Notes under the pieces: model-generated | Told to the model about the DNA's origin: nothing | The model's database searches: none | Seen by the model: the letters and a program-made list of their open reading frames with translations, nothing else | Made by a program: the position numbers and the translations under genes | Source: Bacillus sp. P14.5 | GTDB taxonomy: Bacteria > Bacillota > Bacilli > Bacillales > Bacillaceae_B | Assembly (NCBI RefSeq): GCF_003316765.1 | Contig: NZ_NIJF01000095.1 | Span: forward strand, 62,001-126,000 | Length of the DNA: 64,000 nt | Direction: 5' to 3' | Shown: piece by piece, positions 31,955 through 49,150 of the stretch | How the letters are laid out: each line of letters opens with the position of its first letter | Numbering within the stretch: position 1 is the stretch's first letter

Positions 31955-32050
31955 TGTGACTTGCTCAGATAATATCTGTCGGGTCATCGATTAGGATGTT
32001 CCGCTGCAATAAATCGTTTTTGTAAGAGCATCTGGTGGAAGGAGATGAAA
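31955..32050 (+). promoter_or_regulatory. Probable L19 leader upstream of rplS
   Basis: The leader contains CAGATAATATCTG, then AGGATGTTCCGCTG and AGAGCATCTGGTGGAAGGAG, where GATG/CATC and TTCC/GGAA can pair near the ribosome site. Firmicutes rplS genes commonly carry an autoregulatory L19 leader. Assignment to that family is from position and general shape, not from a covariance search. Confidence 0.45.
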
Positions 32051-32438: not shown

Positions 32439-32448
32439 AGTTTATAAA

Positions 32449-32637
32449 GGCTGTTTTCGCATGGATTGCTGCTTTTGGAAAAATCCCGAGAGCAGATTTT
32501 TCCCCATAGACCAAGTTGTTTCTCTCTGCAAGGAGGAGCAGCTCTTTTCTTTCTTGCCAGTAAGGATATTTATGTCGAATTATGGTGTTTATATTTCGAG
32601 ATTCATATTAAATAGCAGCAAAATTTCGAAAAGAGTC
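32449..32637. mobile_element. MITE-like element R2, copy 1, with 8-bp target duplication
   Basis: A 189-bp non-coding element starting GGCTGTTTTCG and ending CGAAAAGAGTC, flanked on both sides by TTTATAAA (32441-32448 and 32638-32645). Inverted terminal ends plus an exact 8-bp direct repeat indicate transposition. The inside is similar to the other R2 copies read on the opposite strand (AGCAGCTCTTTTCTTTCTTGCC). There is no transposase. The ORF at 32461-32655 is spurious. Confidence 0.85.
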
Positions 32638-32849
32638 TTTATAAAAGTCTTTTAATGATAGGAAACAATCCGGGATCATTAGACGCGGGGTAAGCGGAAA
32701 ATCCACTGCTCCCAAAAGTAATCATAAAATACATAATCATTTAAAACACTGCATACTATGACCTATTTTAAAGTAAATCAGATGTAAACCGTGCCTGTTT
32801 TTTGTAGAATAAGGCTATGGGAAAAATTGAGGCTCAGGAGGGGAACCTG

Positions 32850-33401
32850 GTGGCAAAGCAGAAGAATGAACTGTGGGAATGGACCAAAGCATTATTGATT
32901 GCTGTCGGACTGGCTGCACTGATCCGTTACTTTTTATTTACGCCGATAGTGGTTGATGGTTTATCAATGATGCCTACATTACATAATGGGGACAGGATGA
33001 TTGTAAATAAGTTGAGTTACAGCGTCGGACAACCGGATCGATTTGATATAATCGTTTTTCATGCTCCGGAACAAAAGGACTATATCAAACGTGTAATCGG
33101 GCTCCCTGGGGATACTGTCGAATATAAGGATGATGTACTTTATATTAACGGTGAAGCATATGACGAACCTTATTTGGAAGAATATAAGGAACAGATTGAT
33201 GGCGGCCTTTTGACGGAAGATTTTACTTTAATAGAAAAAATCGGACAGGAAACGGTTCCGGAAAACACTCTGTTTGTTATGGGGGATAATCGCCGTTTCA
33301 GCAAAGACAGCCGGCATATAGGCGTCGTGGAAGTAGATGAAGTCATTGGCAGTACCAATGTCATTTATTGGCCAATCAAAGATATAGAACTCATAAAGTA
33401 A
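32850..33401 (+). CDS. sipS: Type I signal peptidase
   Basis: Signal peptidase I removes signal peptides at the outer face of the membrane. From GTG 32850 (after GAGGGGAACCTG) the protein has 183 residues. A single N-terminal membrane helix (ALLIAVGLAALIRYFLF) precedes the catalytic Ser in SMMPTLHNGDRMIVNK. The catalytic Lys lies in YIKRVIGLPGD, followed by MGDNRRFSKDSR. ATG 32817 in the same frame is an alternative start. The naming within the Sip family is uncertain. The stop codon lies inside the 8-bp duplication created by the R2 element behind it. Confidence 0.93.
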   Translation: MAKQKNELWEWTKALLIAVGLAALIRYFLFTPIVVDGLSMMPTLHNGDRMIVNKLSYSVGQPDRFDIIVFHAPEQKDYIKRVIGLPGDTVEYKDDVLYINGEAYDEPYLEEYKEQIDGGLLTEDFTLIEKIGQETVPENTLFVMGDNRRFSKDSRHIGVVEVDEVIGSTNVIYWPIKDIELIK

Positions 33402-33587
33402 GGCTCTTTTCGTAAACTTTGTTGCTATTTGATGCTAATTCAAAAAATAACCCTATTACGGAGATAAAATCTGGTAGCACCGAAAAAAAGAGCTTCTCTT
33501 CCCCGTTTAGAGTTAAAACTCTTAGTATCCAGGGAAAATCCGGCTCTTGGGATTTTTTCGAAAGCAACAATATATACGAAAACAGCC
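33402..33587. mobile_element. MITE-like element R2, copy 2, with 8-bp target duplication
   Basis: A 186-bp element starting GGCTCTTTTCG and ending CGAAAACAGCC. It is flanked by an exact 8-bp direct repeat, TAAAGTAA (33394-33401 and 33588-33595). The left duplicate contains the TAA stop of the signal peptidase gene. The terminal regions continue the match inward (GTAAACTTTGTTGCT at the left; AGCAACAATATATACG at the right). It has no coding capacity. Confidence 0.9.
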
Positions 33588-33626
33588 TAAAGTAAGAAAA
33601 CAGAAACTTTATTTGGAGGTGACAAT

Positions 33627-34493
33627 ATGACCATTCAATGGTTTCCAGGACATATGGCAAAGGCAAGGAGACAGGTAACCGAGAAATTGAAACTTGTGGA
33701 TATCATCATTGAACTTGTCGATGCGCGCATTCCTATCTCATCCAGAAACCCGATGATCGACGAAGTTGTCCAGCATAAGCCCCGTCTTGTCCTTTTAAAC
33801 AAGGCAGACATGGCCGACAGGGCACTTACAGATCAGTGGATAAGGTATTTCTCAGATAGAGGCATCAAAGCCCTTGCCGTGAATGCCCAGGGAGGGACCG
33901 GCTTAGGAGAAATTGTAAAAGCAGCAAAAGAGATTTTAAGTGAAAAGTTCGACCGGATGAAGTCAAAAGGGATGAAACCGAGAGCGATCAGGGCAATGAT
34001 CGTCGGTATTCCGAACGTAGGAAAATCCACTTTGATCAACAGGCTCGCTAAGAAGAACATTGCGAAAACAGGCAATACGCCTGGTGTAACAAAAGCACAG
34101 CAATGGATAAAGGTCGGCAAGGAAATGGAACTGCTCGATACACCCGGGATCCTTTGGCCGAAGTTTGAAGATCAGGAAGTCGGTTATAAGCTGGCTTTGA
34201 CTGGTGCAATTAAGGATACCATTCTTAACCTCCAGGATATTGCCATATACGGGCTGCGTTACTTAGAAAAACATTACCCAAGGCGTTTGGAAGAGCGCTA
34301 CGGCATCGATGAGTTTCCTGAAGAAATCGTAGAAGTTTTTGATAAAATCGGCATCCAGAGAGGGTGCCTGATTGCAGGTGGCGGAGTGGACTACGACAAG
34401 ACCTCCGACCTTATCGTACGGGATATCAGAAGTGAGAGACTTGGAAAAATAACCTTTGATCTTCCTGAAGATTTTAGTGAAGAACAACAATAA
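33627..34493 (+). CDS. rbgA: Ribosome biogenesis GTPase RbgA
   Basis: RbgA (YlqF) is an essential GTPase for late 50S assembly. The 288-residue protein begins [17 protein letters not shown]. It has a circularly permuted GTPase domain: G4 LNKADMAD precedes G1 [15 protein letters not shown] and G3 [10 protein letters not shown]-terminal RNA-binding region follows. A TTGGAGGTGACAAT ribosome site precedes it. An R2 element separates it from the signal peptidase gene. Confidence 0.96.
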
Positions 34494-34497
34494 AACG

Positions 34498-34551
34498 AAG
34501 CTGATTCCATAGGTGTTTTTTACCCTTATAGAGTCAGCTTGTTTATTTTTT
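34498..34551 (+). terminator. Terminator after rbgA
   Basis: AAGCTGATTC pairs with GAGTCAGCTT (34531-34540, one G-T pair) across a 23-base loop, followed by GTTTATTTTTT. Confidence 0.75.
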
Positions 34552-34608
34552 CACAGTCCTGCCGATAAAAAGAAGGACCATACATAGACAGCAAACAGGA
34601 GTGCATAT

Positions 34609-35385
34609 ATGACGAAAAACTATACAATAGCCGAAGCGGAGAAAATTCTTACAGAAATTACAGATGAAAAAAACGAACTCTTTCAATCATTCATTAATGA
34701 TGAGAGAAAAGGTGTCCAAAAGCTCATCGCTAAATGGCGCAGCGAGCGGAAGCAAGAGGCGGACTTGGAGGAGCAATTTAACCTTATGAGTTCTTTTGAA
34801 AACGAATTGAAGTTCAAGGGTTTTCAGTATATCGCGGGAATTGATGAAGTGGGAAGAGGACCTCTGGCAGGCCCGGTTGTCGCAGCTGCTGTCATCCTTC
34901 CGCTGGATTTTCGATTGCTGGGGATAAATGATTCCAAGAAGCTGTCCGAAAGACAGAGAAACTCATTTTATGAGCTAATTACAGAAAAGGCGATTGCCTG
35001 GGGGACAGGAATTATATCTTCAGAAGAAATCGACAGGCTGAATATCTACCAGGCTTCAAAGAAAGCCATGATTACAGCCGTCAATGGGCTGGGTGTGAAT
35101 CCGGATCATCTGTTAATTGATGCAATGGAACTGGGAACACCTTTCCCTGAAATATCTTTAGTCAAAGGAGATGCCCGCAGCATTTCTATCGCTGCTGCCT
35201 CTATTGTCGCAAAGGTGACGAGGGACAGGATGATGGAAAAGTATGCACAGGATTACCCGGGGTATGGATTCCGAAAGAATATGGGGTATGGAACTAAGGA
35301 GCACTTGGAAGGCTTGAACCAGCATGGTCCGTGTCCAATCCATCGCAGTTCTTTTGCGCCGGTAAAAGAACTTATGTTGAAGTAA
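34609..35385 (+). CDS. rnhB: Ribonuclease HII
   Basis: RNase HII cuts RNA in RNA-DNA hybrids, including single ribonucleotides. The 258-residue protein has an N-terminal helical extension typical of Bacillus (about 70 residues). The catalytic domain has GIDEVGRGPLAGPVVAAAV (Asp-Glu pair), INDSKKLSERQR, LIDAMELG and ASIVAKVTRDRMM. The terminal HRSSFAPVKELM is conserved. It lies 13 bases ahead of the ylqG-like gene. Confidence 0.96.
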   Translation: MTKNYTIAEAEKILTEITDEKNELFQSFINDERKGVQKLIAKWRSERKQEADLEEQFNLMSSFENELKFKGFQYIAGIDEVGRGPLAGPVVAAAVILPLDFRLLGINDSKKLSERQRNSFYELITEKAIAWGTGIISSEEIDRLNIYQASKKAMITAVNGLGVNPDHLLIDAMELGTPFPEISLVKGDARSISIAAASIVAKVTRDRMMEKYAQDYPGYGFRKNMGYGTKEHLEGLNQHGPCPIHRSSFAPVKELMLK

Positions 35386-35398
35386 AGAAGGTGGCGTT

Positions 35399-37261
35399 AT
35401 GCTGGAACGCGGAGTACAAAGCAGCTCATTTCAAGCTCAGAAATCTCACTATCCATCCAAATTGAATGATGGACAGGTAATATACGCGAAAATTAATAAG
35501 GTGTTGCCTGAAGGGATGGCGGAAATCAATTATAAGGGGCAGAAGATGATCGCGAAATTGGAAGCCCCGCTTGTCGCAGGAAACCATTATATTTTTCAAA
35601 CAGAGCTCGGGGATGAAGGCGTTCTTAATTTGAAGGTGATATCAACTCTCCAGGGTGAAGTGAAAAGTTCATTCTCAGACATTGCTGAAAAGCTGATGAG
35701 CGATCTTCAGCTTCCAAAAGGGGGAAATATCAAGGAATTGGTTACTCTCATGGTCAAGAACTCCCTTCCTTTCTCAAAAGGTGAATTGATCAGGATGAAT
35801 GCACTGCTGGCTGATTCATCGGACAAGCAGGAAGGGATTCAAACTCTTTTGAAGCTGAAGGGTGCCGGCCTGACCATTACCCGGCCTCTATATCTTTCAC
35901 ATTTATATGGAAAAAACATGGAATCGGTATCAGAGCTATTGAACAGACTTGAAGCGGCTTTAAAGAAAAACACTTCATTGCCGGTGGAGAGCAAGGGGAT
36001 TTTCAAAGTTCTCACAGAAGTGAAAGAAAGTGAAAACACCAAGCTATTTCAGAAAGTTGTTAAAAACACTTTTAGCCTGGTAATGGATAATAGAGAAGAT
36101 CTGACAACGCGTTCATCGGCTCTCAAGCTTCTTCAAATGTTGGGGGTTGTATCGGAGTCCGTTTCTTTGGAGAGGGCAGCATCCTTATCGGGAGAAACCT
36201 CTAAGCCTTCAGGTCAAGCCGGTCAAGGTGGTATCGCTGGAGGGGCTGCCCCGATTAAGGATAAGCTGGTCGTTTTGTCTGAACTATTATCAAAAATGAA
36301 GTCACCCGATGAAAAGGGCCAGCTTCTGTTCAAGGAAGTCCAGAGTGTTTTGAAAAGCATGGAAACCGGAGGAAGGGATTCCCAGGAGCTAATAAAAACA
36401 GGGGCAGAATTAATCAGGCGGGGAGAAGCAGTGTTTTCGGAAAAAGGAATGACTCAATTGACGGATACGGAAAAATTCAACCTTAATAATGGTATCCATT
36501 CAAGGAAAGAACAGCAAGGATTAAATCGTTTTTTGAGCATGATTGAGCAGCTGAATCAGAACCGCCCCCCGGAACAGCCGGCAATGAAACTGCTTCAAAA
36601 GATGATGGTGATTGATGAAGGAAATGCTGCCAGGATCCATATAGAAAGTCTGCCGGAAATAATTAAGGATCTCATTTCAAAGCTGGGATTGAACCAAGAG
36701 GCAAAGCTTGCTGCAGGATTTGCCGGGGAGCGGTCCCTGAACGACTCACTGAAACCGTCTTTAATTGCCCTTTTGAAAGACCTTCCTCAAGGGGAGACGA
36801 GGGATGCGGCTGAAAGGCTCCTGTATAAGCTGAACGGCCACGCTGTCCTATCTGGGGAGAACGGGCCCCTGCAGCATGTAGTTTACCAGCTGCCGCTATC
36901 CTGGCTCAACCAAAGAACAGACCTGACCATGCAATGGACTGGAAGGAAGACCGATAAAGGGAAGATTGATTCTGAATATTGCCGTGTATTATTCTATCTC
37001 GAATTGAAAAGTATCAAAGAGGTCATCGTCGATATGACAGTCCAAAACAGGTCCATAACGTTAAATATTTACAATGATACCCCTAAGTTAAAGGAATTAT
37101 CAGGACCGTTTTCATTAAATATGAAGGAGGGCCTTGAAAAGCTTGGCTATAAATTATCCTCCGTCAATTTCAAGGAATCTGGAACTTCCGCACCAGTTAA
37201 GGAAAGGTACCGGGAACTGGCGGGGGAAGTTCCCTATTCTGGAGTGGATCTTAAAATATGA
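35399..37261 (+). CDS. ylqG: YlqG-like protein with FliK-like C-terminal domain
   Basis: A 620-residue protein in the B. subtilis ylqG position, not functionally characterised. The N-terminal 80 residues look like a small beta domain (GQVIYAKINKVLPEGMAEINYKG). The middle is long, helical and poorly conserved. The last 130 residues (YQLPLSWLNQRTDLTMQW, VLFYLELKSIKEVIVDMTVQ, LKELSGPFSLNMKEGLEKLGYKLSSVNF) have the pattern of the flagellar hook-length control FliK C-terminus. It overlaps a small FlhB-C-like gene, which supports a secretion-switch link. Function is inferred only. Confidence 0.8.
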   Translation: MLERGVQSSSFQAQKSHYPSKLNDGQVIYAKINKVLPEGMAEINYKGQKMIAKLEAPLVAGNHYIFQTELGDEGVLNLKVISTLQGEVKSSFSDIAEKLMSDLQLPKGGNIKELVTLMVKNSLPFSKGELIRMNALLADSSDKQEGIQTLLKLKGAGLTITRPLYLSHLYGKNMESVSELLNRLEAALKKNTSLPVESKGIFKVLTEVKESENTKLFQKVVKNTFSLVMDNREDLTTRSSALKLLQMLGVVSESVSLERAASLSGETSKPSGQAGQGGIAGGAAPIKDKLVVLSELLSKMKSPDEKGQLLFKEVQSVLKSMETGGRDSQELIKTGAELIRRGEAVFSEKGMTQLTDTEKFNLNNGIHSRKEQQGLNRFLSMIEQLNQNRPPEQPAMKLLQKMMVIDEGNAARIHIESLPEIIKDLISKLGLNQEAKLAAGFAGERSLNDSLKPSLIALLKDLPQGETRDAAERLLYKLNGHAVLSGENGPLQHVVYQLPLSWLNQRTDLTMQWTGRKTDKGKIDSEYCRVLFYLELKSIKEVIVDMTVQNRSITLNIYNDTPKLKELSGPFSLNMKEGLEKLGYKLSSVNFKESGTSAPVKERYRELAGEVPYSGVDLKI

Positions 37262-37542
37262 AAAAAATTAATGAGAATAAGAGAAAGCAAGCGGTAGCGC
37301 TTCAGTATGCGGCAGACAAACAGCAGGCACCCAAGGTCGTTGCCAAGGGAAAGGGATTGATTGCAGACAATATTCTTGATAGGGCCAAAGAGTATGAAAT
37401 CCCAGTACAGGAGGACCCTGCCCTTGTTGAATTGCTGGGAAGTCTCGATATTAATGAATCCATTCCTGAGGAACTTTATCAAGCGGTGGCAGAAGTGTTT
37501 GCTTTTCTGTACAGAGTCGACAAGGAAGCTGGAAGAAGCTGA
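37258..37542 (+). CDS. ylqH: FlhB C-terminal-like protein (YlqH/FhlB type)
   Basis: The 94-residue protein matches the cytoplasmic C-terminal domain of the flagellar export switch FlhB/YscU. It has RKQAVALQYAADKQQAPKVVAKGKGLIADNILDRAKEYEIP and ELYQAVAEVFAFLYRVD. It lacks the membrane part and the NPTH autocleavage site of FlhB. Its ATG overlaps the ylqG stop, so the FliK-like and FlhB-C-like proteins are made together, outside the main flagellar operon. A hairpin follows the stop. Confidence 0.88.
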   Translation: MKKINENKRKQAVALQYAADKQQAPKVVAKGKGLIADNILDRAKEYEIPVQEDPALVELLGSLDINESIPEELYQAVAEVFAFLYRVDKEAGRS

Positions 37543-37570
37543 AGCGTATTGAAAACTTCAGCGTTCTTTT
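37538..37570 (+). terminator. Terminator-like hairpin at the end of ylqH
   Basis: GCTGAAG (37538-37544) pairs with CTTCAGC (37556-37562), followed by GTTCTTTTC. The tail coincides with the left end of an R1 repeat. Confidence 0.55.
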
Positions 37571-37774
37571 CGCAAAGATTGTCTCTGATGAGAATTAATG
37601 GATTTCCGCTCCAGGCGTACGACTCCGCGGGGCGGGCGGTGAGCCTCCTCGGCTGCGCCTGCGGGGTCTCCCCTGTCCCGCTAGTCCCGCAGGAGATCGT
37701 ACGCCTTCCGCTCCAATCCTCCTACATGAAGGGCAATTAAGGTAAAATCGCATTTTAAGCAAAATTGAAAAGCC
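37563..37774. repeat. GC-rich hairpin repeat, family R1, copy C (long form, uninterrupted)
   Basis: This is the most complete copy. The GC core has AGGCGTACGA (37613-37622) pairing exactly with TCGTACGCCT (37697-37706). It continues inward with CTCC/GGAG, GCGGG/CCCGC and a second GCGGG/CCCGC. Outer AT-rich arms run from GTTCTTTTCGC to TTGAAAAGCC, resembling the GGCTSTTTTCG ends of the R2 elements. The ORF at 37549-37740 is a translation artefact. Confidence 0.8.
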
Positions 37775-37782
37775 TTATTAAA

Positions 37783-37971
37783 TAGATGGTATCAGCATTT
37801 AGAGTTGCTTTCGGAATATGTTGAGGGCAGGTTCCTTCCCGTATACAGAGATTTCTCTCTCTATACGGGGGAACAGCTCTTTTCTTCTTGATTACCATAA
37901 TATTTCCTGTGAATAATGGCGTTAGCTTACCAAGTTAATATTAAATAGCAACAAAGTTTACGAAAACAGCC
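37783..37971. mobile_element. MITE-like element R2, copy 3, with 8-bp target duplication
   Basis: A 189-bp element, in the orientation opposite to copies 2, 4 and 5, ending CGAAAACAGCC. It is flanked by an exact 8-bp repeat TTATTAAA (37775-37782 and 37972-37979). The left end has decayed (TAGATGGTATCAG), but the interior AGAGTTGCTTTCGG and the right end AGCAACAAAGTTTACG match the family. It abuts the right end of R1 copy C. Confidence 0.82.
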
Positions 37972-37979
37972 TTATTAAA

Positions 37980-40501: not shown

Positions 40502-40669
40502 GGCTCATTTCGTTAACTTTGTTACTGGTAAATATGAATCCTGGAAAATAACTCCATAGTTCACCAGAAACATCATTGTAATCAAGAAAAAAGAGGTCCT
40601 CCCTGCGATTAGAGAGAAATACTCAGTATCTCGAGGAAAATCCGTCTATTGAAATTTTCGAAAACAGCT
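40502..40669. mobile_element. MITE-like element R2, copy 4 (degenerate)
   Basis: It starts GGCTCATTTCGTTAACTTTGTTAC and ends TTTTCGAAAACAGCT, with internal TCAAGAAAAAAGAGG, ATTAGAGAGAAATACTCAGTATC and GAGGAAAATCCG shared with other R2 copies. No clean 8-bp duplication remains, so this looks like an older copy. It fills most of the space between sucD and dprA. Confidence 0.7.
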
Positions 40670-40709
40670 ATGTAGGAAGCTGAAGAAATAAATTAACCAG
40701 GAGGTAAAA

Positions 40710-44331: not shown

Positions 44332-44517
44332 GACCCTCTTTTCGTAAACTTTGTTGCTAATTTATATGAACCTCATATGGTAACGCCAATATTCAAGTGA
44401 ATATTCTGGTAGGCAAGAAAAAAGCTACTCGACCATTTAGAGAGGAAAACCTTAGTCTCCGTAGGAGATTCTTGCTTTAGAAATTTTCCGGAAGCAAAAA
44501 TTAGTGAGATAACTGAC
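44332..44517. mobile_element. MITE-like element R2, copy 5 (degenerate right end)
   Basis: The left end CCCTCTTTTCGTAAACTTTG is very close to R2 copy 2. The interior (GGCAAGAAAAAAGCTACTC, ATTTAGAGAGGAAAACC, AATTTTCCGGAAGCAA) follows the family. The right end has decayed and no target duplication is visible. It occupies part of the slot where trmFO is expected. Confidence 0.72.
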
Positions 44518-44538
44518 TATTTTTTGGTATCTTTCTAA

Positions 44539-44724
44539 AAGGTCTTACTTTATAATGTGTTTTTACCTTAGCCCCCTTTTACGTAGGAGGATTGGAGCGG
44601 AAGGCGTACGATCTCCTGCGGGACTAGCGGGACAGGTGAGACCCCGCAGCCGAGGAGGCTCACCTGTCCCGCCTGAAGCGGAAATCCATTACTTCTCAAT
44701 AGTGAAAATCTTTACGAAAGAGAG
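44539..44724. repeat. GC-rich hairpin repeat, family R1, copy D (internally deleted)
   Basis: The left half is intact (GGAGCGGAAGGCGTACGA at about 44594-44611), but most of the right half is gone. What remains folds as GCGGGACAGGTGAG (44627-44640) pairing exactly with CTCACCTGTCCCGC (44659-44672). It then jumps to GAAGCGGAAATCCATT. The ORF at 44555-44752 is an artefact of the repeat. Confidence 0.75.
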
Positions 44725-44830
44725 TTTTATAAATACAAGCAGCAGTAAATGAATGAGCACTAACGGTAAAATGGACACTCATTAGAAACAATTCAGAACT
44801 TTGTGAAATATTTGTAAACTCCATTGCGCC

Positions 44831-49018: not shown

Positions 49019-49063
49019 AATAGTACATACAGTTTACGACATAATTCTACAATTTTAACAGAA

Positions 49064-49150
49064 AAGGCAAACTCTACTGAAAAGAGAGGACGCAAAGCCA
49101 CGGGCCTAATGACAAACATGTTTATGGCAGCCGGGTTACCTAAGAGAGCA
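49064..49150 (+). promoter_or_regulatory. Cyclic di-GMP-I (GEMM-I) riboswitch aptamer
   Basis: The sequence carries the GEMM-I signatures in order: GGCAAAC, a CTCT...GAAA...AGAG hairpin, GGACGCAAAGCCACGGGCCTAA, then TATGGCAGCCGGGTTACC. The GAAA loop and the CCTAA...TATGG receptor that it docks into are both present, as are the conserved guanine and cytosine stretches around the ligand site. A terminator follows within 30 bases, and the next gene is flgB. It should make the flagellar operon respond to the second messenger c-di-GMP. Confidence 0.95.

What the first reader, a model, noticed from the sequence alone, without database searches (positions are those of the whole stretch)
32441..37979. 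R2: a roughly 187-bp MITE-like element with exact 8-bp target duplications, five copies in the window
Copies at 32449-32637, 33402-33587 and 37783-37971 are flanked by perfect direct repeats TTTATAAA, TAAAGTAA and TTATTAAA. Degenerate copies lie at 40502-40669 and 44332-44517. The best ends are GGCTSTTTTCG and CGAAAACAGCC, in inverted order. Three different, exact 8-bp duplications are hard to explain except by transposition. The GG-starting ends and 8-bp target size fit mobilisation by an ISL3-type transposase; that is inference.
Basis: partly seen in the sequence, partly recalled or inferred. Interest (0 to 1): 0.72.

Follow-up and report, generated by a model that had tools for sequence, protein, structure and literature searches.

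The report
Non-autonomous IS1595-family transposon, ~190 bp
The repeat is a short DNA parasite that cannot move by itself; its ends match those of full-length insertion sequences of the IS1595 family (not ISL3, as first guessed), and it sometimes moves joined to a second, GC-rich repeat.

Summary
A profile finds five copies in the window, three with exact 8-bp duplications. Of 44 full-ended copies in the host DNA I held, at least 13 have exact 8-bp duplications, none 9 bp. The end pattern matches 187 times in the genome; reversed control 0. At copy 2, three related species show the empty site with one TAAAGTAA. So R2 is a MITE.

The ISL3 guess is not supported: the host has no ISL3 transposase match, and no ISL3 element in 30 loci from relatives carries R2 ends. 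The matching family is IS1595: of 77 loci in named records, 51 carry R2-type ends on both sides, 40 of those with exact 8-bp duplications; scrambled ends gave 0. No IS1595 element with R2 ends was found in the host, so its copies are probably stranded.

Beyond the finding, a GC-rich repeat also carries IS1595-type ends. R2 joined to it moves as one: a 305-bp composite has TTTCAAAA on both sides, and a relative has the empty site with one.

New member of a known kind.

The parts
32441..32448 (.). 8-bp target duplication TTTATAAA, left of copy 1 (partner 32638-32645)
   Evidence: Sequence
32449..32637 (+). R2 copy 1, 189 bp, between rplS and lepB (gene names recognised by eye; an L19 leader lies upstream)
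   Evidence: Profile hit 150.7 bits; absent in relatives G028 and G033 at the same place
33394..33401 (.). 8-bp target duplication TAAAGTAA, left of copy 2 (partner 33588-33595); its last three bases are the stop codon of the frame 32817-33401
   Evidence: single TAAAGTAA at the empty site in G028, G033, G009
33402..33587 (-). R2 copy 2, 186 bp, between the frames 32817-33401 and 33627-34493
   Evidence: Profile hit 157.5 bits
37562..37774 (-). GC-rich repeat unit (R2b) abutting the duplication of copy 3; its end at 37562 is IS1595-type (4 of 25 mismatches), the limit at 37774 is read by eye and did not pass the end test
   Evidence: L264
37775..37782 (.). 8-bp target duplication TTATTAAA, left of copy 3 (partner 37972-37979)
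37783..37971 (+). R2 copy 3, 189 bp, left end degenerate
   Evidence: Profile hit 142.9 bits
40502..40692 (-). R2 copy 4, degenerate; right limit about 40692, no intact duplication seen
   Evidence: Profile hit 91.4 bits, envelope 40502-40692; absent in G028 and G033
44335..44517 (-). R2 copy 5, degenerate, no intact duplication seen
   Evidence: Profile hit 89.6 bits; the interval is short and lacks it in G028 and G033
44526..44725 (+). GC-rich repeat unit (R2b) beside copy 5, approximate limits; both ends too decayed to pass the end test (9 and 10 of 25 mismatches)
   Evidence: L260

Best explanation
R2 is a miniature inverted-repeat transposable element, about 161-195 bp, that keeps only the two ends of an IS1595-family insertion sequence around an unrelated core. 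The IS1595 transposase of a full-length element acts in trans on the ends and inserts R2 into AT-rich sites, making 8-bp duplications; the surviving copies lie mostly between genes. It spread in a small clade of the genus (inferred to be Rossellomorea). In this host no element carrying a transposase and R2 ends was found, so the copies are probably stranded now. Shown: the ends, duplications, empty sites, and full-length IS1595 elements with the same type of ends and duplications in relatives. Inferred: action in trans, and loss of the mobiliser.
For: Ends and exact 8-bp duplications. Full-length IS1595 elements with R2-type ends: L121 (TTTAGATA, 1482 bp, 335-aa frame) and L122 (AAAAAGAA, 1665 bp, 335 aa) with exact duplications; L123 (AAATAGAA, exact, but its frame lacks the beginning); L120 (335 aa) with one mismatch in the duplication. 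77 loci in named records: 51 with both ends at 6 or fewer mismatches of 25, 40 of those 51 with exact duplications; 20 scrambled-end runs gave 0 of 77 for both. L121 matches PF12762 at 59.1 bits (cut-off 27) and NF033547 at 208.9 (cut-off 75). R2 keeps left/right polarity: its ends match the IS better in the same orientation than reversed in 39 of 45 elements (64 considered, 19 dropped for unclear ends or duplications). Empty sites. 4 of 40 R2 sites (4 of 44 dropped for short flanks) lie in a stop-free frame of 150 codons or more, against 96 of 200 random points. Closest copies 99.5% identical.
Against: Transposition was not observed. The shared part is only about 28 bp on the left and 30-50 bp on the right; no full-length element carrying the R2 core was found, so the exact parent is unknown. 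26 of the 77 IS1595 loci did not pass the two-end test (63 pass on the left, 62 on the right; some are cut by contig ends). The IS in G009 has GTAAAGATTG at its right end where R2 has GTAAACTTTG. The host's single IS1595 element (transposase 43% identical) has other ends, GGCTATGTTAAAG; cross-mobilisation by it cannot be excluded. The host assembly is in 121 contigs, so a copy lost in a gap is possible.
Confidence: 0.92

Rival explanations
1. R2 is a MITE mobilised by an ISL3-family transposase.
For: GG-starting ends and 8-bp duplications also occur on ISL3 elements in relatives (L062, L063, L078, L081).
Against: No ISL3 transposase match in the host. In 30 of 57 ISL3 matches fetched from relatives no ISL3 element carries R2 ends; the best resemblance to the R2 end is 8 or more of 25 mismatches except in L073, where a separate R2 copy lies near an ISL3 remnant at a contig end.
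Confidence: 0.02
2. R2 is now kept as a structured regulatory RNA or terminator, and mobility is only its origin.
For: The consensus folds into internal hairpins; the first 20 of the well-aligned copies have a shared fold of -20.3 kcal/mol, mostly the paired ends and the first hairpin; copies 1 and 2 sit just behind genes.
Against: The covariation term for those 20 copies is only -0.39; over 27 well-aligned copies the shared fold is nearly nil (-1.2 kcal/mol) and over all 44 there is none; seven copies cleanly lack the first hairpin; no Rfam match at R2; four of the five window copies are absent at the same places in G028 and G033, the fifth could not be resolved.
Confidence: 0.04
3. R2 is moved in this host by its own intact IS1595 element with GGCTATGTTAAAG ends.
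For: Same family, intact 370-aa frame, 8-bp duplication AATGTATA.
Against: By direct count its end differs from GGCTCTTTTCGTAAACTTTG at 11 of 20 bases, and nothing in its locus comes nearer to the R2 end than 10 of 25 mismatches, whereas 51 of 77 IS1595 loci match within 6 of 25 on both sides.
Confidence: 0.08

Closest known systems
IS1595 family insertion sequences (PF12762/NF033547)
   Same: Same type of 25-bp ends and AT-rich 8-bp duplications in the elements seen here. Passages of PMC8101967 describe the family as usually flanked by 8-bp duplications, with a zinc finger (except the IS1016 group) and a DDE domain; the GG ends are stated there for the related eukaryotic Merlin elements.
   Different: R2 has no transposase gene and a core unrelated to the sampled IS.
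ISHwa6-related MITE of Haloquadratum walsbyi (IS1595 type, 165 bp, 7 copies, IR 25, DR 8)
   Same: An IS1595-type MITE of similar size, end length and duplication length (one table row of PMC3852290 seen).
   Different: Archaeal, 7 copies; R2 has 63 distinct copies in the host DNA held and forms composites.
ISApl4 (IS1595 family, compared there with IS1016 elements)
   Same: A/T-rich 8-bp duplications (passages of PMC12561309).
   Different: Autonomous 712-bp element with 14-bp ends.
ISL3 family
   Same: GG ends and 8-bp duplications (7 of 30 loci).
   Different: Different end sequence and transposase.

Membership tests
MITE derived from the IS1595 family | Terminal inverted repeats shared with full-length IS1595 elements | tested here: met
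   51 of 77 IS1595 loci have R2-type ends on both sides, scrambled controls 0; ends of L121 and L122 within 2-4 of 25 mismatches
MITE derived from the IS1595 family | 8-bp target duplications | tested here: met
   13 of 44 exact (lower bound), 0 of 44 at 9 bp, shifted control 1 of 176
MITE derived from the IS1595 family | Short, no room for a transposase gene | tested here: met
   44 full-ended copies of 161-195 bp
MITE derived from the IS1595 family | Inserted: empty site in relatives | tested here: met
   Copy 2, single TAAAGTAA in G028, G033, G009
MITE derived from the IS1595 family | Internal deletion derivative of a known parent | tested here: inconclusive
   Homology to sampled IS limited to about 28 bp left and 30-50 bp right
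MITE derived from the IS1595 family | Moved in trans by the IS1595 transposase | not testable with these tools
   Needs an assay
IS1595 family (the partner element, L121/L120) | DDE_Tnp_IS1595 domain and zinc-binding N-terminus | tested here: met
   L121: PF12762 59.1 bits over cut-off 27; NF050000 (zinc-binding) 51.4 over 28; but PF12760 (zinc ribbon) 20.7, below its cut-off 25.4
ISL3-derived MITE | Ends shared with an ISL3 element | tested here: not met
   30 of 57 ISL3 matches from relatives examined, none with R2 ends as its own
ISL3-derived MITE | 8-bp duplication | tested here: met
   Met but does not discriminate

The most novel reading that the evidence does not exclude
One group of IS1595 transposases drives a whole guild of non-autonomous elements in Bacillales: R2 in one clade, other cores elsewhere (inferred), and a GC-rich palindromic repeat that looks like an ordinary intergenic repeat but carries IS1595-type ends. 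R2 and the GC-rich unit have fused and move as composite elements of about 300-570 bp, so small IS1595 derivatives spread REP-like repeats through the genome.
Probability: 0.6. Interest if true: 0.5.

Novelty: new member of a known kind. Interest (0 to 1): 0.4.

Why it matters
It gives an abundant repeat, for which my paper searches found no name, a mobiliser family and so a testable mechanism. It also shows that GG ends plus an 8-bp duplication are not enough to call ISL3. The composite with a GC-rich palindromic repeat offers a route by which REP-like intergenic repeats could spread: as cargo between transposon ends.

Tried and rejected
ISL3 as mobiliser: not supported. Plasmid and phage collections with copy 3: only matches of about 30-36 bp, no annotated transposase under them; the phage match (L130) shows only hypothetical proteins and was not followed. 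Conserved RNA structure: weak. Longer variants of 248-570 bp as decayed autonomous copies: tblastn with the L121 transposase against eight elements (seven of 248-570 bp and one of 114 bp) found nothing; most are R2 joined to the GC-rich unit. Copy 3 empty site: not resolved, the flanks have diverged and both relatives have R2-like matches in the interval. At the place of the L056 composite, G033 has a different small insert. In L308 (G033) the composite-like pair of ends has 2 mismatches in its duplication. Papers: a text search for the R2 end listed 20 papers, by title none on a bacterial repeat, none opened; the GC-rich core gave 0 papers; IS1595 with MITE listed 12; other searches gave nothing used beyond PMC12561309 and PMC8101967 (listed). 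I saw passages only of PMC3852290, PMC12561309 and PMC8101967. Siguier et al. 2009 is known to me through their reference lists and recall. The library lacks most subscription papers, so 'not described' is not shown.

Weak points: host searches score at most 40 candidates per query, so copy numbers are lower bounds. The end templates were partly taken from L121-L123, and those partly from the GC-rich copies themselves. In one search only 11 of 30 GC-rich units pass at both ends, only one has an exact duplication and two a one-mismatch one. An earlier count said 13 of 30 have R2 beside them; the rows give 12, which I use.

Full report
What was checked. The three intact copies and their duplications TTTATAAA, TAAAGTAA and TTATTAAA are exactly at the stated places. 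A profile from 11 copies (three of them from the window) finds five copies in the window, two of which (4 and 5) were not used to build it. Copy 4 ends near 40692, not 40669. The end pattern occurs 187 times in the 4.87-Mb host genome, the reversed control 0 times. In the host loci held, 63 distinct copies were found, 44 with both ends; 13 of 44 have exact and 9 a one-mismatch 8-bp duplication, 22 are worse, none has 9 bp, against 1 exact in 176 shifted comparisons. The duplications are AT-rich.

Empty sites. At copy 2, species G028, G033 and G009 have the unoccupied site with one TAAAGTAA; G008 lacks R2 too but the site has diverged. The duplication includes the stop codon of the frame before it. 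At copy 1, G028 and G033 lack R2 and show a similar, not identical, TTTATTAAA. Copies 4 and 5 are absent from the same intervals in G028 and G033. Copy 3 could not be resolved. R2 thus inserted after these species parted, or was lost cleanly; at copy 2 a clean loss in three species is the less simple reading.

Who moves it. The host has no match to the ISL3 transposase. Among 61 genomes (host included) ISL3 occurs in 16 (57 matches); of 30 loci fetched, 7 show an end pair with a duplication, none R2-like. A search for IS1595 (PF12762) hit 9 of the 61 genomes, 8 over the cut-off. Of the ten loci returned, L121, L122 and L123 have R2-type ends on both sides with exact 8-bp duplications, L120 with one mismatch, L127 degenerate ends; L125 (the host) has other ends and its own exact duplication; L124, L126, L128 and L129 show no R2 ends. 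The partner transposase is a 335-aa IS1595 protein. A scan of named genomes with it found 140 stretches encoding a relative; the best 80 were kept, giving 77 distinct loci, mostly from Bacillales (Bacillus, Metabacillus, Priestia, Niallia, Rossellomorea, Sporosarcina, Paenibacillus and others), with a few records labelled otherwise (Lacticigenium, Clostridium, Pseudomonas, Chryseobacterium). Choosing ends by resemblance alone, 51 of 77 have both ends within 6 of 25 mismatches, and 40 of these 51 have an exact 8-bp duplication (45 with at most one mismatch); twenty scrambled-end runs gave 0 of 77 each time.

How R2 relates to the IS. Homology ends after about 28 bp on the left and 30-50 bp on the right; orientation is kept in 39 of 45 elements. 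The left end resembles GTATAGATTGTTGCTTTC and the right is GTAAACTTTGTTGCT, as on the right of L186, L195, L197 and L239. The core was not found in any of the 45 IS compared. Within R2 the right end is the best conserved part (97%).

Distribution. R2-type ends occur in 46 of 61 genomes (host included), in some at over 250 places (G008 274, G028 318, G059 254), but the R2 core was found in only 5 of 61: G000, G008, G009, G028, G033. So the other genomes probably hold different cores between the same ends; I did not look at those cores. Intact R2-type transposase frames are rare: in the 36 genomes of the genus, G024 and G009 have a full-length one and G011 a shortened one; G000 and G010 have a more distant one (43%), and several others only remnants. 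Remnants in G018 and G005 lie between R2-type ends.

The composite. Elements of 248-570 bp with R2-type outer ends turned out, mostly, to be R2 joined to a GC-rich repeat; L056 (305 bp) and L042 (570 bp) have exact 8-bp duplications, L005, L027 and L037 one mismatch, L015 and L030 two. Thirty copies of that GC-rich repeat (the best 30 of 43 matches) were tested: 16 have an IS1595-type left end, 20 a right end, 11 both; control windows 0. Their duplications are mostly decayed: one exact (L282, 224 bp, AAATTATA, standing alone), two with one mismatch. In 12 of 30 an R2 copy lies within 130 bp of the GC-rich core, in every case on the same side; by my own arithmetic less than one would be expected by chance. 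The composite moves as one: in the host the 305-bp composite (L056) has TTTCAAAA on both sides, and G028 has the same flanks with a single TTTCAAAA. In G033 two composites at other places, 298 and 552 bp, have exact duplications TTATAGAA and TTTTAAAT; a third (L308) has two mismatches. In the window, copies 3 and 5 each lie beside a GC-rich unit (37562-37774; about 44526-44725). Without an outer duplication there, these two cannot be called composite insertions.

Verdict. R2 is an IS1595-type MITE, as far as sequence can show it; action in trans is inferred. IS1595-type MITEs are known (Haloquadratum; table row in PMC3852290), so the kind is not new. The less ordinary part is the fusion with a GC-rich repeat that also has IS1595-type ends.

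Noticed in passing
L181-L257, e.g. L182:4072-4596, L186:4067-4582, L203:4118-4642, L207:4041-4673, L208:4059-4532, L239:4081-4791: 28 of 40 IS1595 elements with R2-type ends have more than 450 bp behind the transposase match (in a few because the match was partial), with a further frame there that mostly differs between elements (L182, L184 and L185 share one). Ten frames were located; of the 8 longest tested, 7 match Pfam families (DinB/MST-like, HAD hydrolase, two GNAT acetyltransferases, phosphoesterase, alpha/beta hydrolase, SAP/DUF6434), L255 none. They look like exchangeable passenger genes.
   Followed up: partly
37562-37774 and about 44526-44725; G000 loci L260-L289: A GC-rich palindromic repeat (43 matches in the host, 40 of them strong) carries partly decayed IS1595-type ends; no Rfam match in the window and no text match in the paper library.
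   Followed up: yes
R2 alignment, copies L008, L033, L046, L047, L055, L011, L038: Seven R2 copies lack the first internal hairpin cleanly (TATCCC or similar in its place), about 20 bp shorter.
   Followed up: no
R2 consensus positions 94-105; 32540-32550 and 37875-37885: A well conserved internal stretch, AGCTCTTTTCTT, resembles the terminal end GGCTCTTTTCG; possibly an internal transposase-binding site or a relic of a nested end.
   Followed up: no
L014:1387-1500: A 114-bp element with IS1595-type ends, related to the GC-rich side of L056 (80% over 111 bp), has exact duplications TTTCGTAA, a sequence that also occurs inside the R2 end; possibly an insertion into an R2 copy.
   Followed up: no
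49056-49143 and 31993-32034: c-di-GMP-I riboswitch (83.2 bits) and an L19 leader (40.5 bits) in the window.
   Followed up: no
L073 (G008:C56): An ISL3 remnant at a contig end lies near an R2 copy; the only such case among the 30 ISL3 loci fetched.
   Followed up: no
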